DNA of 64,000 bases from Acinetobacter dispersus (GTDB taxonomy: Bacteria > Pseudomonadota > Gammaproteobacteria > Pseudomonadales > Moraxellaceae), in assembly GCF_009884975.1 (NCBI RefSeq), contig NZ_CP041970.1:3100001-3164000 (forward strand). Reading direction: 5' to 3'. The notes under the pieces are model-generated. The model saw only the letters and a list, made by a program, of their open reading frames with translations. It ran no database searches and was not told where the DNA came from. The position numbers and the translations under genes are program-made. Shown piece by piece: positions 1-39,705 of this stretch (its first letter is position 1; each line of letters starts with the position of its first letter).

Positions 1-186
1 TTGCCAGCCAAATACAAAATGAACCTCAGTAATGAAGATAAAACTCGTTATCAACAAATCCTGCGTGAAGCACGTATGGGATTGACTAAACGTGGTATTT
101 ACGATGCCACCATGATGAATGTACTCAAACGTGCACGTTGTACCGTGGATCGGACCAATTTTGAATGTACTTTAGGTGGTGAATAA
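1..186 (+). CDS. C-terminal end of a secreted putative solute-binding protein (DUF6091-like), cut by the window edge
   Basis: Only the last 61 residues are present; the gene begins upstream of the window. The tail aligns without gaps to the ends of the three complete proteins that follow (391-1392, 1610-2617, 2906-3910). It shares the pattern of a tyrosine/glutamine-rich helix, a GIYDA-type motif, then ARC and FEC cysteines and a terminal GE. It is therefore a fourth member of the tandem family. The in-frame TTG at base 1 is not a real start because the signal peptide and main domain are missing. Function is unknown beyond resemblance to periplasmic solute-binding proteins. No clear terminator is visible before the next copy. 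Confidence 0.85.
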   Translation: MPAKYKMNLSNEDKTRYQQILREARMGLTKRGIYDATMMNVLKRARCTVDRTNFECTLGGE

Positions 187-390
187 ATCAGTACATAGGG
201 GATGGATGTTTCAATACTCTCCTTTTGAGTTGATATTGGCCTAAAACATTAAAACGTGATCAAGTCTGTTAAAACTGACGAAAACCCGATGTATGTATAT
301 AAAAGCGCTATGCATTTAGGAAAAAGCTGACTATATTTATCGAGCACTGATGGAAAATTGTGCAAGATAGTAAAAATAAGGGAAAACGAG

Positions 391-1392
391 ATGAAAAAAG
401 GACTTTGGGCATTGAGTGCTACGGCTCTATTTGTCATGGCTACTCCTGTACAGGCAAAACAACAAATTTGTGTTTTTGATTTATTGGGTAAGGCTGGGGA
501 GTCTTATAAACTGATTGAAGAATGGAAGCTTGCCTCTAAAACATGGCAGGGCGATGTTGAATTAATTCCTTATCAAGATGAAGAAAAAGCGGAAAAAGAT
601 TTCGATGCAGGCAAATGTGATGGCGTGTATATGACCTCCATGCGTGCACGTAAATATAATAAATTTGCAGGCTCAGTCGATGCGGTTGGTGCAGTTACCA
701 GTAATGCCATTGCACAAAAGGCAATCACCTATGTATTGGATAAACGAAATCAGCATCGTTTAACGGCAACAGTCAACGGTGATAAATTTGAAGTCGTCGG
801 TATTATCCAAGTGGGATTGGCATATATCTTTGTCCGCGACAAAAAGATCGACACCATTGAAAAAGCCAAAGGTAGAAAATTTGCTTATCTACACTATGAT
901 CAAGCACAAAAAACCATTGTTGAAAGCATAGATCTAGTTGCTGTCCCATCTGATATTTCTGATTTCGTGAAGAAATTTAATAGTGGCCAAGTAGATGTGA
1001 TTGCTGCACCAGCGTACGCCTATAAACCACTTGAAATTAGTAAAGGCTTAGCTAATGGGGCGCTGTTTAATTTTCCTGTGGTGAATATTACAGGTGACTT
1101 AATTATTCGTCCGAGTCAATTCCCGAATGGATTTGGTCCACAATCTCGACAATGGTTTGTCAATAAACTGCCAAGTAACTTTGCCATGGTGCAACGTTTA
1201 GAGGCAGGAATGAACGCGAGAAAAATTACCTTGTCGAGCGAAGATAAAGTTCGTTATCAAAAAATGTTACGTGATGGTCGCATGAATTTAACCAAGCAGG
1301 GCGTATACGATGCTAGTATGATGAATGTACTCAAGCGTGCCCGTTGTACGGTTGAGCGGACAAACTTTGAGTGTACTTTGAGTGGTGAATAA
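391..1392 (+). CDS. Putative periplasmic solute-binding protein (DUF6091-like), tandem paralog 2
   Basis: This 333-residue secreted protein starts with a typical signal peptide (MKKGLWALS, hydrophobic stretch, cleavage after PVQA near residue 22). The mature protein opens with an ICVFD motif whose cysteine is residue 27. It then has an AGKC segment and two more cysteines near the C-terminus (ARC and FEC); all four recur in the neighbouring copies, so two disulfide bonds are plausible. Acinetobacter genomes carry this family as 'putative solute-binding protein'; I know no characterised ligand. The ATG at 391 is chosen over an upstream start at 358 because only it places the signal peptide at the N-terminus. 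A terminator-like hairpin lies about 120 bases downstream, suggesting it is expressed apart from the next copy. Confidence 0.85.
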   Translation: MKKGLWALSATALFVMATPVQAKQQICVFDLLGKAGESYKLIEEWKLASKTWQGDVELIPYQDEEKAEKDFDAGKCDGVYMTSMRARKYNKFAGSVDAVGAVTSNAIAQKAITYVLDKRNQHRLTATVNGDKFEVVGIIQVGLAYIFVRDKKIDTIEKAKGRKFAYLHYDQAQKTIVESIDLVAVPSDISDFVKKFNSGQVDVIAAPAYAYKPLEISKGLANGALFNFPVVNITGDLIIRPSQFPNGFGPQSRQWFVNKLPSNFAMVQRLEAGMNARKITLSSEDKVRYQKMLRDGRMNLTKQGVYDASMMNVLKRARCTVERTNFECTLSGE

Positions 1393-1512
1393 CAAGGAGA
1401 ACAGCAGTACAAAAATATAAATCTATAAACAAAGTGAGGCATATATAACAAATTTGCCTATGAAAATAATAGAAATAGATAAAACTGGGTAAAAAGTATA
1501 CAAACTAGACAT

Positions 1513-1542
1513 AAAAATAGAGTATAAGCTCTATTTTTTTTC
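1513..1542 (+). terminator. Rho-independent terminator between paralogs 2 and 3
   Basis: An 8-base stem (AAATAGAG with CTCTATTT) encloses a 6-base loop and is followed by a run of Ts. It sits about 120 bases after the stop of the upstream paralog and about 70 bases before the next start. Confidence 0.7.
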
Positions 1543-1609
1543 AAAAAACATGATTAATATTTGCTTCGAACAAGGAGACAAACATAAAGTTTGTGAAGGG
1601 ATGAAAAAT

Positions 1610-2617
1610 ATGAAAAAAATTGCACTTGCTCTTGCAGCAACTTCGATCTTAGGTGTATCTGCTTCTACTCAAGCAGCAATTGACGTGTGTGTATTCGACT
1701 TATTAGGAAAGTCAGGTGAATCATACAAAATGATGCAAGACTGGGCACTCGCAGCGAAAAGCTGGGGCGCTGATGTCAATCTTCTCGCGCTTACAGATGA
1801 GCAGGTTGCGGATAACAACTTTAAAGCAGGTAAATGTGCTGCTGTTGCAATGACCGCTATGCGTGCCCGCCCATATAACAAGTTTGCTGGTTCTGTAGAT
1901 TCATTAGGTGGTGCGCCAAGTAATGAAGTTGCACAACGCGCAATTACTTATGTTCTAGACGCACGTAATGCAGCAAAAATGACCACCACTTTAGGTGGAA
2001 ATAAATATGAAATTGGTGGTATCGCTCCAATGGGTGCCGCATACATTTTTGTACGTGACAAGAGTATTAATTCAATTGAAAAAGCAGCGGGTAAAAAATT
2101 CGCAGTATTGGGTTATGACGATGCGCAAAAAATCATGGTACAACGCGTAGGTGCTCAAGCCGTACTTTCTGATATCTCTAACTTCGCTGCTAAATTTAAC
2201 AATGGTCAAGTGGACATGGTTGGTGCGCCTGCTTATGCCTACAAGCCATTAGAATTAAGCAAAGGTTTGGGTACCAATGGTGCAATGTTTAACTTCCCTG
2301 TACTACAAGTCACAGCGGATCTAGTTTTACGCCCAGAAAAATTCCCAGCAGGTTTTGGTCAAAAATCTCGTGATTATTTTGTGAAGCAACTTCCAAAAGC
2401 ATTCTCAATGATCAAGCGTTATGAAGCTGAAATCCCAGCGAAATACAAAATGAACTTAACGGCTGAAGACACATTGAAATATCAAAAATTAATGCGTGAT
2501 GGTCGTTTAGAAATGACTAAACGTGGTATTTACGATGCTGGTATGATGTCTGTATTGAAAAAAGCACGTTGTTCAGTAGACAAAGCTAACTTTGAATGTG
2601 CATTACCTGGTGAATAA
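1610..2617 (+). CDS. Putative periplasmic solute-binding protein (DUF6091-like), tandem paralog 3
   Basis: This 335-residue secreted protein has the signal peptide MKKIALALAA...STQA, cleaved near residue 22, followed by the family's VCVFD opening. The AGKC, ARC and FEC cysteines are conserved. I chose the ATG at 1610, about ten bases after a GAAGGG ribosome-binding site. The ATG at 1601 directly abuts that site, and the one at 1550 would bury the signal peptide. Its last 60 residues are very close to those of the truncated first copy, including a run of more than 20 identical bases. It has its own terminator downstream. The fold is probably a two-lobed binding protein, but the ligand is unknown. 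Confidence 0.85.
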   Translation: MKKIALALAATSILGVSASTQAAIDVCVFDLLGKSGESYKMMQDWALAAKSWGADVNLLALTDEQVADNNFKAGKCAAVAMTAMRARPYNKFAGSVDSLGGAPSNEVAQRAITYVLDARNAAKMTTTLGGNKYEIGGIAPMGAAYIFVRDKSINSIEKAAGKKFAVLGYDDAQKIMVQRVGAQAVLSDISNFAAKFNNGQVDMVGAPAYAYKPLELSKGLGTNGAMFNFPVLQVTADLVLRPEKFPAGFGQKSRDYFVKQLPKAFSMIKRYEAEIPAKYKMNLTAEDTLKYQKLMRDGRLEMTKRGIYDAGMMSVLKKARCSVDKANFECALPGE

Positions 2618-2642
2618 TCAGTAATTGCGATATATCACACTT

Positions 2643-2676
2643 AAAGCCTAGATTCATCTAGGCTTTTTGTTTTTTA
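2643..2676 (+). terminator. Rho-independent terminator after paralog 3
   Basis: A 9-base stem (AAGCCTAGA with TCTAGGCTT) with a four-base loop is followed by a T-rich tail. It begins 26 bases after the stop codon. Confidence 0.9.
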
Positions 2677-2905
2677 GGCTTTGTCATTTGAGTCATTGTG
2701 TTTATTTTGAAAGATCGTAATCATACAAATATATAAAAAGCCAAATGAAATCTTGAAGATTTAAAATATGTTTTAATCAGGACGATTGGACATGACTGAA
2801 CAAAAACATATTTTTATGTGAAAGCCCAGAGCAGGATGTTAGCTAATTCTTTAATTTTTGGGTGTGATGCAACAACAATCAGCATAGATGCAAAGGAAAA
2901 ATAAA

Positions 2906-3910
2906 ATGCAATGGTTTAAAACATTATTACTTGCAACAGGTATCGCTGCGGTATCTGCAGGCGCTCAGGCAAAACAAACAATTTGTGTATTCGATATCGT
3001 GGGTAAAAGTGGCGATGTCTATGCATTAATGAAAGATTATCAGCTTGCTGCAAAAAACTGGGGTGCTGATATTGAACTGAAAGTCGCGACCAATGAAGCT
3101 GTGATCGCGGAAGACTTTAAAGCGGGTAAATGTGATGGCGTGAGTATCACAGGCATGCGTGGCCGCCAGTTTAACCCATTTACAGGATCATTGGATGCGA
3201 TTGGGGCAATTACAGACCTTAAACTTGCTGTGAAGGTGATGCAAGGTTTGGCGAGTCCAACTTTTGCCAAAGCGATGGTGAATGGTAAATATGAAGTCGT
3301 AGGTGTAATCCCAGTGGGAGATGCTTACTTACTTGTGAATGACCGTAATATCAATACCGTTGCCAAGGCTGCAGGTAAGAAAATCGCCGTTTTAGATTAT
3401 GACGAAGCCCAAAAAATTATGGCTTCGCAAGTCGGTGCACAGGCGGTCAGTTCAGATATCACTAACTTTGGTGCGAAGTTTAACAATGGTCAGGTCGATA
3501 TTATTGGAGCACCAGCGGCAGCGTTCAAACCTTTGGAGCTTTATAAGGGCTTGGGAACAAAAGGTGCAATTGTGAATTACCCAATTTTACAAGTAACTGG
3601 TAATTTGATCATTCATCCAGATAAATTCCCTGAGGGTTTTGGTCAAAAATCAAGAGAATGGGTAAAAGCACAATTGCCGCGTGCATTTACAATTCTTGGA
3701 AAAATGAAGGCAGACATTCCACAAAAATATTGGATGGAAGTTCCAGCTTCGGATAAACCAGGTTATCAAAAACTGATGCGTGAAGCGCGCATTAACCTGA
3801 CAGCAAAAGGAATCTATGACAAACGGATGATGAAATTGCTATGGCAATTCCGTTGCCGCGAAGATGCGAAGAACTTTGAATGTGGTCTGCAAGATGAGAA
3901 CTATAAATAA
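2906..3910 (+). CDS. Putative periplasmic solute-binding protein (DUF6091-like), tandem paralog 4
   Basis: This 334-residue secreted protein has a signal peptide starting MQWFKTLLLATG and ending GAQA near residue 23, then the TICVFD motif. It is the most divergent complete copy. The GIYDA motif becomes GIYDK, the ARC region becomes FRC, and the C-terminus is extended past the usual GE to end in ENYK. The four family cysteines are kept. The ATG at 2906 has an AAAGGA ribosome-binding site nine bases upstream; the ATG at 2888 lacks one. About 230 bases separate its terminator-bounded unit from paralog 3, enough room for its own promoter. Ligand unknown. Confidence 0.85.
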   Translation: MQWFKTLLLATGIAAVSAGAQAKQTICVFDIVGKSGDVYALMKDYQLAAKNWGADIELKVATNEAVIAEDFKAGKCDGVSITGMRGRQFNPFTGSLDAIGAITDLKLAVKVMQGLASPTFAKAMVNGKYEVVGVIPVGDAYLLVNDRNINTVAKAAGKKIAVLDYDEAQKIMASQVGAQAVSSDITNFGAKFNNGQVDIIGAPAAAFKPLELYKGLGTKGAIVNYPILQVTGNLIIHPDKFPEGFGQKSREWVKAQLPRAFTILGKMKADIPQKYWMEVPASDKPGYQKLMREARINLTAKGIYDKRMMKLLWQFRCREDAKNFECGLQDENYK

Positions 3911-3951: not shown

Positions 3952-3996
3952 AGACCCGATATTGAGTATGCTATACTAAATATCGGGTCTTTTATT
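3952..3996 (+). terminator. Terminator of paralog 4 with an extended -10 promoter in its loop
   Basis: A 12-base perfect stem (3952-3963 with 3979-3990) precedes TTTTATTT. The 15-base loop contains TGCTATACT, an extended -10 promoter element (TATACT at 3972-3977), about 55 bases before the erpA start. No convincing -35 box is visible, which is normal for extended -10 promoters. Confidence 0.7.
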
Positions 3997-39054: not shown

Positions 39055-39705
39055 ATGAATAAAAAACATATCGTTCTTGCCACATTGCTCAGTCTCAGCA
39101 GCTTTGCAGTGACTGCAGCAACAGATACAGCCAAACTCAGTTTGCATCGGAACAATATTAAGGTTTGGACGTACCAAACAGAAAACAATCCGATTATCCA
39201 ATATAAAGCTGAGACCACATTTGATGTGCCTTTAGAGCGTGCTGTGGCGGTAGTACTGGATGTAGAACGAACACCGCAATGGGTGCCGTATGTGGGCAAG
39301 GCACAAATGCTGTCACGTGATGATAAGAAAGGTGAATTCACCTTGTATATGGTTCTGGACTTTCCATTTCCTTTAAAAGATCGTGATGTGGTGATTAAAG
39401 GCAAAATGAGTAAGAATGCGGATGGCAGCATTAATATTAAAAACAATGCCATTCAGAATAATTACCCTGAGCAGCCTGATGTGGTACGGTTAAGCAAATA
39501 CGCGGGTGATTGGACGTTCCAGCGACTGCCAAATAACAAAGTAAAAGTGACGACCAGTGGCTATGCCGATCCTGCAGGGGCAATTCCATTGAGCTTTGTG
39601 AATATGTTTGTGCAGCAGCAGCCTTATCAAATGCTGATGAAAATGAAAAAAGAAGTGAATAATCCTTTATATGCGCAACCGAAGTTACCAGATTTATTGA
39701 AATAA
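39055..39705 (+). CDS. Secreted START-domain (lipid-binding-like) protein
   Basis: A 216-residue protein with a signal peptide (MNKKHIVLATLLSLSSFAVTAA, cut near residue 22) and a START/Bet v1-like helix-grip domain covering the rest. Motifs include FDVPLERAVAVVLDVERTPQW and FPLKDRDVV. Such proteins bind a hydrophobic ligand in a cavity; which ligand is unknown, and it would act in the periplasm. The ATG at 39055 gives a clean signal peptide; a GTG at 39013 would add 14 residues before it. Confidence 0.82.
   Translation: MNKKHIVLATLLSLSSFAVTAATDTAKLSLHRNNIKVWTYQTENNPIIQYKAETTFDVPLERAVAVVLDVERTPQWVPYVGKAQMLSRDDKKGEFTLYMVLDFPFPLKDRDVVIKGKMSKNADGSINIKNNAIQNNYPEQPDVVRLSKYAGDWTFQRLPNNKVKVTTSGYADPAGAIPLSFVNMFVQQQPYQMLMKMKKEVNNPLYAQPKLPDLLK

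What the first reader, a model, noticed from the sequence alone, without database searches (positions are those of the whole stretch)
1..3910. Tandem array of at least four secreted, four-cysteine solute-binding-like proteins with no characterised function
Three complete genes and the end of a fourth lie head-to-tail. All complete copies have signal peptides and keep the same four cysteines (in the CVFD, AGKC, ARC and FEC motifs). Terminators separate at least the last three, so the copies may be expressed independently with different ligands. No permease or ATPase is present inside the window. This is the best candidate here for an undescribed system; partner genes may lie upstream of the window.
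Basis: partly seen in the sequence, partly recalled or inferred. Interest (0 to 1): 0.7.

Follow-up and report, generated by a model that had tools for sequence, protein, structure and literature searches.

The report
Scattered binding proteins of one transporter
The tandem genes, named AdeT and often called antibiotic-efflux parts, look instead like several interchangeable binding proteins that feed one membrane transporter, probably for oily or lipid-like molecules, whose other parts lie elsewhere in the same Acinetobacter chromosome.

Summary
The array is real: four head-to-tail genes (one starts 822 bases upstream of the window) for secreted proteins with four invariant cysteines. They belong to Pfam PF19582 (AdeT1/2); the genome holds nine copies. 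By predicted fold AdeT is a TRAP-transporter binding protein (Z 27), not a known RND pump part. Its partner was found: in 46 of 60 named loci outside Acinetobacter/Alkanindiges an AdeT gene lies directly upstream of a TRAP-type permease gene, in 44 after a lipoprotein gene. The lipoprotein model matches TatT, the T part of TPAT-type TRAP transporters. In Acinetobacter the AdeT genes have left this operon and multiplied. AdeT and permease are present or absent together in 118 of 119 Acinetobacter genomes; a START-domain (lipid-binding type) gene, in this window at 39055-39705 and linked to the operon in some relatives, also agrees with AdeT in 118. AdeT has Ala where classical TRAP binding proteins have the carboxylate-binding Arg, as in Tp0957, which has a hydrophobic pocket. 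Best reading: a dispersed TPAT-like importer with many alternative binding proteins, probably for hydrophobic cargo. Ligand, contacts and direction are untested. New variant of a known kind.

The parts
1..186 (+). 3' end of AdeT-family copy 1 of the array (335 aa; 822 bases of the gene lie upstream of the window)
   Evidence: PF19582 269 bits
391..1392 (+). AdeT-family TRAP-type binding protein, copy 2 (333 aa; the 344-aa TTG ORF starts at 358)
   Evidence: array position p3, in the clade of p3 and higher positions
1513..1538 (+). terminator-like hairpin with a run of T, after copy 2
   Evidence: z -5.5; not listed by the scan, which asks for at least 3 G-C pairs
1610..2617 (+). AdeT-family TRAP-type binding protein, copy 3 (335 aa)
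   Evidence: array position p2 clade
2643..2666 (+). terminator-like hairpin after copy 3
2906..3910 (+). AdeT-family TRAP-type binding protein, copy 4 (334 aa), in one clade with the operon-borne relatives of other genera (support 0.806); AlphaFold model m5de06ba3b052
3952..3990 (+). terminator-like hairpin after copy 4
   Evidence: z -7.1
39055..39705 (+). START-domain (lipid-binding type) protein, 216 aa, with a signal peptide by eye; probable accessory part of the same system
   Evidence: PF01852 42.5 bits, cut-off 22; agrees with AdeT in 118 of 119 genus genomes; a homologue lies downstream of the AdeT-permease operon in 8 named loci of relatives

Best explanation
The AdeT genes encode alternative substrate-binding (P) subunits of one TPAT-type TRAP transporter. 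Proposed working: each AdeT is exported to the periplasm, stabilised by disulfides, and binds a small, probably hydrophobic, molecule. A TatT-like lipoprotein (T part, 367 aa) helps load or guide the cargo. The permease (734 aa, DctM-type C-terminal part, read here as a fused QM subunit) takes it from AdeT and carries it across the inner membrane using an ion gradient, as TRAP transporters do. A START-domain protein probably shuttles or presents the lipid-like cargo. In many other genera the parts form one gene run (T-P-QM). In the Acinetobacter lineage the P gene left that run, whose slot now holds a rhombosortase gene, and multiplied into several loci (nine copies here, four in this array), so one permease is served by many binding proteins with separate expression. 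Shown by computation: family, predicted folds, linkage in other genera, joint presence and absence, absence of the carboxylate-binding arginine. Inferred: Q-M fusion (from length and the missing DctQ), physical P-T-QM contact, import, hydrophobic cargo, disulfides, different ligands per copy, role of the START protein.
For: Fold: the AdeT model (pLDDT 88.7) matches TRAP binding proteins (4nn3, Foldseek E 6.3e-16; Z 27.1, 290 aligned). Partner count: no DctQ hit in the genome and two DctM hits, the 734-aa permease (54 bits) and a partial hit at 24.1 bits against a cut-off of 23.8, whose gene I did not examine. Linkage: 46 of 60 named loci outside Acinetobacter/Alkanindiges have AdeT directly upstream of the permease on the same strand, 44 with the lipoprotein before it; gap -29 to 521 bases, median 107. 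Co-occurrence in the genus: AdeT 100 of 119, permease 99 of 119, agreeing in 118; START gene 99 of 119 (E <= 1e-10), agreeing with AdeT in 118. Across the order: AdeT in 53 of 293, this permease subfamily (E < 1e-70) in 52, all within the 53 and in 0 of the other 240. T part: the lipoprotein model matches TatT (3u64 Z 17.3, 4di3 chain A Z 17.4). Arginine: SiaP position 147 aligns with AdeT Ala161, Ala in 37 of 37 rows of A4 and Ala, Gly or Ser (27, 3, 1) in 31 of 31 rows of A2; Tp0957 also has Ala there, with a hydrophobic pocket (PMC4646407, passages).
Against: In Acinetobacter itself no AdeT gene lies beside the permease (0 of 20 Acinetobacter/Alkanindiges loci). 14 of 60 other permease loci lack a neighbouring AdeT. 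Discordant genomes: G110 (AdeT and START, no permease; 64% complete), G024 (no START; 93% complete), G291 (AdeT, only a 68-residue permease piece; 99% complete). G099 counts as permease-bearing, but its permease is in two pieces with in-frame stops although it keeps AdeT. The joint absences are few independent events: 5 supported pairs, all agreeing without G110 and 5 of 6 with it, sign test p 0.0625, the least that five pairs can give, so the plain Fisher values overstate the case. No unlinked accessory gene was tested genome-wide as a negative control. The lipoprotein has no sequence match to TatT; its link is structural, and weak in Foldseek (best E 0.035). The N-terminal half of the permease matches no DctQ model. 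AdeT is not a lipoprotein by eye, unlike TatP of Treponema (PMC5812351). I saw no ligand, transport or contact data for AdeT with these partners.
Confidence: 0.77

Rival explanations
1. Same parts, other direction or purpose: the T, P, QM and START parts form a lipid-trafficking line that maintains the envelope (moving membrane lipids or acyl chains between the membranes) rather than scavenging nutrients.
For: START domain; TatT-like lipoprotein that also resembles a bacterial sterol transporter, 7t1s (Z 13.4); the AdeT copy near 1.55 Mb lies downstream of a thioesterase-superfamily gene and a fatty-acid desaturase gene.
Against: TRAP transporters are known as importers (established knowledge); the gene neighbours are single loci and may be chance.
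Confidence: 0.25
2. AdeT is a subunit of an RND-type efflux pump that gives antibiotic resistance, as its name and many papers say.
For: PMC7687900 (abstract, introduction, discussion) cites an earlier report of resistance by AdeT1, states that AdeT1 forms an efflux pump active on ethidium in E. coli, and that a propionylated form raised erythromycin MIC fourfold. PMC10325922 (one passage) reports lower adeT expression in a dksA mutant that is more sensitive to aminoglycosides.
Against: PMC7687900 found no resistance from wild-type AdeT1 and a frame-shift in the earlier plasmid. The predicted fold is a TRAP binding protein. An adeT transposon mutant of AB5075 showed minimal MIC change (PMC10648852, passages), though gentamicin was at the ceiling of the assay. 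Linkage is to a TRAP permease. The dksA result is a correlation in a global regulator mutant.
Confidence: 0.03
3. Orphan binding proteins used as sensors or buffers, without a dedicated permease, as one may think for orphan Bug proteins of the TTT family.
For: Many copies, each away from the permease, as with Bug proteins (PMC5812351, passages).
Against: AdeT is absent altogether from the same 19 of 119 genomes as the permease, and linkage elsewhere is strong.
Confidence: 0.06

Closest known systems
TPAT: TPR-protein-associated TRAP transporter (TatT, TatP(T) Tp0957, TatQM of Treponema pallidum)
   Same: Three-gene set of T protein, DctP-fold P protein lacking the carboxylate-binding Arg, and a QM-type permease; T model matches TatT
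   Different: T shares no detectable sequence with TatT; P has a cleavable-type signal peptide (by eye) and four cysteines; in Acinetobacter the P genes are unlinked and multiplied; a START protein travels with the system
Classical DctP-type TRAP binding proteins (SiaP, TeaA, DctP)
   Same: Fold (the 50 listed rows have Z 23.9-27.1) and DctM-type permease
   Different: Ala, Gly or Ser instead of the conserved Arg; four invariant cysteines; permease whose N-terminal half matches no DctQ model; T part
AdeT1/AdeT2, PF19582
   Same: Sequence family (240-513 bits for eight of nine copies, 157 for the ninth)
   Different: The published role (RND efflux, aminoglycoside resistance) is not supported by fold or linkage
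Orphan Bug proteins of TTT transporters (Bordetella; PMC5812351, passages)
   Same: Many unlinked binding proteins for few permeases
   Different: Other transporter class; here the permease partner can be named
Bst sterol-binding proteins (PMC10942540, passages)
   Same: BstC and the lipoprotein here both resemble TatT
   Different: BstB is grouped there with phosphonate-type binding proteins; I saw no AdeT or DctM permease in the passages

Membership tests
PF19582 AdeT1/2 | profile score above the curated cut-off | tested here: met
   all nine copies above 27 bits
DctP-type TRAP binding protein | DctP fold | tested here: met
   (predicted model of one window copy)
DctP-type TRAP binding protein | PF03480 or TRAP_S1 profile above cut-off | tested here: not met
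   TRAP_S1 best 43 bits (0.24-Mb copy), window copies 14-32, cut-off 50; PF03480 seen only for the 3.52-Mb copy at 13 bits, cut-off 23.4; remote member by fold only
DctP-type TRAP binding protein | conserved Arg that binds the ligand carboxylate | tested here: not met
   Ala161 in 37 of 37 rows of A4; Ala 27, Gly 3, Ser 1 of 31 rows of A2
TPAT | P and QM genes together with a T gene | tested here: met
   44 of 60 named loci outside Acinetobacter/Alkanindiges; in 19 of 20 Acinetobacter/Alkanindiges loci T and QM only
TPAT | fused QM permease | tested here: inconclusive
   734 aa with a C-terminal DctM match; no DctQ match in the protein or genome; a crude hydropathy count did not resolve the helices
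TPAT | T protein with the TatT fold | tested here: met
   predicted model, Z 17.4 to 8g52 and 4di3, 17.3 to 3u64; Foldseek E only 0.035
TPAT | T protein related to TatT by sequence (PF16811) | tested here: not met
   no PF16811 among the matches of 23 lipoproteins at E 0.1; no PDB sequence match
TPAT | P protein with Ala at the SiaP Arg147 position | tested here: met
TPAT | T trimer that binds P and has a hydrophobic pore | not testable with these tools
   needs a complex structure or binding assay
RND efflux pump membrane fusion protein | RND adaptor fold or profile | tested here: inconclusive
   no RND adaptor family in the Pfam and NCBIfam scans and none among the 50 listed rows; a missing match alone is no proof
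Classical TRAP with separate DctQ | DctQ gene in the genome | tested here: not met
   no match in the own genome

The most novel reading that the evidence does not exclude
Acinetobacter runs a dispersed envelope lipid-transport machine: one TatT-like lipoprotein and one or two TRAP-type permeases, a START-domain periplasmic carrier, and up to about ten alternative binding proteins that let one transporter handle a range of hydrophobic molecules. The genes long cited as the AdeT efflux pump are its cargo receptors.
Probability: 0.5. Interest if true: 0.78.

Novelty: new variant of a known kind. Interest (0 to 1): 0.64.

Why it matters
Papers on Acinetobacter count AdeT genes as efflux or resistance genes (search listings); this assigns them a different and testable job with named partners. 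It gives TPAT transporters, whose natural cargo was still called unknown in the papers I saw (PMC4646407, PMC10942540, passages), a tractable host with natural variation in receptor number. It also shows how a transporter can gain range by multiplying and scattering its binding proteins while the permease stays nearly single. A START-domain protein as a further part would point to lipid cargo.

Tried and rejected
RND efflux reading: not supported by fold or linkage. TAXI-type TRAP: three NMT1_3 hits elsewhere in the genome, two over cut-off, none within 70 kb of an AdeT copy; their neighbours were not examined. Partner genes upstream of the array: gyrB, a PepSY gene, a DedA-type (VTT) gene and an ABC-F-like ATPase gene lie there (gyrB and ABC-F named from recall), no transporter partner. 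Neighbours of the operon in other genera (10 proteins) matched helicase, PNPase, ferredoxin, PhoH, kinase and polymerase families or nothing, so gave no substrate clue. PDB search by sequence with one AdeT found nothing, and with the lipoprotein alignment nothing. Two papers on TPAT (PMC3289903, PMC3367087) are not held, so I could not see whether Acinetobacter is among the 35 other species that the review PMC5812351 mentions. Mapping of variable residues onto the cleft was not done because I had no model coordinates in the script box. A limited control in the gyrB-erpA neighbourhood (the 82 of 101 loci longer than 12 kb) showed a DedA-type gene in 5 of 11 AdeT-less and 18 of 71 AdeT-bearing loci, so it does not track AdeT; this is local, not genome-wide, and confounded by array length. 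TatP of Treponema was not among the 50 rows; that is no evidence against it.

Rows dropped: the gyrB tree used 101 of 119 genomes. G029 and G113 have only gyrB fragments; 16 further AdeT-bearing genomes were left out by me, mostly close relatives of others. Of 564 permease relatives only the best 80 were returned, and several are near-copies of one species, so they are not independent. The strong-permease cut-off (E < 1e-70) was set after seeing the list; the weakest strong genome has 2.7e-77, the next 3.0e-12. G000 and G044 are in both the genus and the order sets.

The START gene was not chosen blindly: PMC6679007 (passages) mentions a STRING co-occurrence link between AdeT and ABUW_0040, a START-domain protein; I then tested its likely homologue in this window.
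Full report
What is there. Window 1-3910 holds three complete genes and the end of a fourth, head-to-tail. The fourth is whole in the chromosome (335 aa). The window lies at 3,100,001-3,164,000 of a single-contig genome of 4.02 Mb. The genus is Acinetobacter: the genome's permease is 98.6% identical to one of Acinetobacter higginsii CIP 70.18 and 92-99% to those of six further named Acinetobacter loci. All three complete copies match PF19582, 'Solute-binding protein AdeT 1/2'. The genome has nine copies at five places: four in this array, two near 0.70 Mb, and one each near 0.24, 1.55 and 3.52 Mb. Identities between copies are 25-85%. The four cysteines are invariant in 40 of 40 aligned members. 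Terminator-like hairpins follow the last three array copies.

Fold. An AlphaFold model of the last array copy, built on 37 sequences, has mean pLDDT 88.7 and pTM 0.85. Its best matches are TRAP-transporter periplasmic binding proteins: 4nn3 at Foldseek E 6.3e-16 and Z 27.1 over 290 residues at 2.8 A. By sequence the link is weak: NCBIfam TRAP_S1 is below cut-off, and a family profile reaches PDB TRAP proteins only at E 0.015 and 0.036.

The missing permease. A TRAP binding protein needs a permease. The genome has no DctQ match and two DctM matches: a 734-aa permease at 54 bits, and a partial hit at 24.1 bits (cut-off 23.8) in another gene that I did not examine. The permease gene follows a gene for a lipoprotein (367 aa, lipobox by eye) and a rhombosortase gene (TIGR03902, 146 bits). 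A profile of the permease family matches solved TRAP permeases (DctMQ 9pym E 1.4e-6, large permease component 7qha E 1.2e-4). I read the 734-aa protein as a Q-M fusion from its length; its N-terminal half matches no DctQ model.

Linkage outside the genus. Of 564 relatives of the permease in the named genome collection the best 80 were returned. Sixty are outside Acinetobacter and Alkanindiges. In 46 of the 60 an AdeT gene lies directly upstream of the permease on the same strand (gap -29 to 521 bases, median 107); in 44 the lipoprotein gene precedes it. Hosts include Pseudomonas, Limnobacter, Aquabacterium, Agitococcus and Paraperlucidibaca. Fourteen have no AdeT beside the permease. In all 20 Acinetobacter/Alkanindiges loci AdeT is absent from this gene run, and in 19 the order is lipoprotein, rhombosortase, permease. 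So the binding-protein gene appears to have left the run in this lineage. In some unnamed relatives several AdeT genes lie around one or two permeases (L091, L106, L113), a plausible intermediate, and in two the order is AdeT, lipoprotein, permease (L096, L097).

Joint presence and absence. AdeT is in 100 of 119 genus genomes, with 1 to 11 matches each, and the permease in 99 of 119. The 19 genomes without AdeT are 19 of the 20 without permease; the other is G110, 64% complete. G099 counts as permease-bearing, but its permease is broken into two pieces with stops. On a gyrB tree of 101 of the 119 genomes the absence needs 8 changes, at least 5 forced by supported branches; all 5 supported independent pairs agree once G110 is set aside (5 of 6 with it), and the sign test is p 0.0625, the floor for five pairs (a FastTree version gave 9 changes). 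Across the order, AdeT is in 53 of 293 genomes and this permease subfamily (E < 1e-70) in 52, all among the 53. The exception G291 holds only a 68-residue permease piece. Another 128 of the 293 genomes have weaker permease matches, presumably other TRAP types, without AdeT, which serves as a specificity control.

The T part. The lipoprotein has five invariant cysteines in 29 of 29 aligned members and no convincing Pfam or PDB sequence match. Its AlphaFold model (from L171, Acinetobacter beijerinckii; pLDDT 85.4) is all-helical. Best matches are 8g52 'bacterial TPAT family transporter' and 4di3 chain A (TatT-TatP complex), both Z 17.4, and 3u64 (TatT) 17.3, then the sterol transporter 7t1s at 13.4; the next row, a designed helical barrel, has 12.5. 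Foldseek also ranks 3u64 first but at E 0.035. The set T, P, QM is the gene set described for TPAT systems. The review PMC5812351 (section on TPAT read whole) reports TatT as 13 helices and one small helix around a hydrophobic pore, reports the proposal that TPATs take up hydrophobic molecules, and says that among free-living proteobacteria TPATs occur mostly in species that degrade hydrocarbons.

Cargo. In SiaP Arg147 binds the ligand carboxylate. In the profile alignment with 2xwk (the R147A mutant) this position meets AdeT Ala161, which is Ala in 37 of 37 rows of one alignment and Ala, Gly or Ser (27, 3, 1) in 31 of 31 rows of the other. PMC4646407 (passages) says that Tp0957 has alanine there and a hydrophobic pocket, and that about 3% of 6142 such proteins lack the Arg. 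This argues for non-carboxylate, probably hydrophobic cargo.

A further part. [quoted passage not shown] The START protein here is at window 39055-39705 (PF01852, 42.5 bits). It is present in 99 of 119 genus genomes and missing from the same 19 plus G024, 93% complete. In 8 named loci of relatives a homologue lies downstream of the AdeT-permease run, and in 5 AdeT-less loci a divergent pair lies upstream of the permease. I read it as an accessory part; its role is inferred.

Evolution of the array. Counted from erpA, array copies fall into three clades in a midpoint-rooted FastTree of the family: position 1 (72 of 73), position 2 (69 of 69), and position 3 (60 of 60) together with positions 4 and 5. 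Position 1, the last copy in the window, groups with the operon-borne proteins of other genera (support 0.806). In 15 of the 19 AdeT-less genomes gyrB and erpA are both visible in the stretch taken, and no AdeT was found in it. Conserved separate lineages argue against plain redundancy, so different ligands or conditions are likely but untested.

What is known. The family name comes from claims of RND efflux. PMC7687900 (abstract, introduction, discussion) found that wild-type AdeT1 gave no resistance in E. coli and noted a frame-shift in the earlier plasmid, though it still calls AdeT1 a membrane fusion protein, reports ethidium efflux, and reports higher erythromycin MIC with a propionylated form. 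An adeT transposon mutant had minimal MIC change (PMC10648852, passages). PMC10325922 (one passage) reports lower AdeT expression in a dksA mutant that is more sensitive to aminoglycosides, and PMC3758355 (passages) expression of one adeT gene in biofilm only. Library searches for AdeT with 'TRAP transporter' and Acinetobacter, AdeT with 'solute-binding protein' and A. baumannii and 'putative solute-binding protein' with 'TRAP transporter' and Acinetobacter returned no paper; TPAT with Acinetobacter returned one, on Treponema outer-membrane proteins (listing only); TPAT with 'TRAP transporter' returned nine, none on Acinetobacter by title. The library is open-access only, these are word searches, and the original TPAT papers are not held, so the link may be in print elsewhere.

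Verdict. A new variant of a known kind: a TPAT-type TRAP system whose binding proteins have been scattered and multiplied. Confidence is high for partner and class, moderate for hydrophobic cargo, low for direction and for ligand differences between copies.

Noticed in passing
L026:5197-5778; L169-L200: A rhombosortase gene occupies the slot between lipoprotein and permease in Acinetobacter/Alkanindiges loci, and lies behind the permease in Agitococcus/Fluviicoccus-type loci. Whether it acts on a part of this system is unknown.
   Followed up: partly
L162, L171, L176-L180, L185: Eight of the 20 Acinetobacter/Alkanindiges loci carry two permease genes in tandem. In G064 a decayed second piece lies beside the intact one, and in G099 the permease is split with in-frame stops.
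   Followed up: no
L012:9325-10575: One AdeT copy (416 aa, with an N-terminal extension) lies downstream of a 2520-aa repetitive, trimeric-autotransporter-like ORF (name from recall) and an OmpA/BamE-domain protein.
   Followed up: no
L011:9937-12552: One AdeT copy lies just downstream of a thioesterase-superfamily gene and a fatty-acid desaturase gene on the same strand, a possible hint at acyl cargo.
   Followed up: no
L151, L154, L157, L159, L160: Permease genes without a neighbouring AdeT but with two divergent START-domain genes beside them: perhaps a related system using START carriers.
   Followed up: no
L010:9248-10192: The two AdeT copies near 0.70 Mb flank a PF10118 predicted metal-dependent hydrolase gene.
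   Followed up: no
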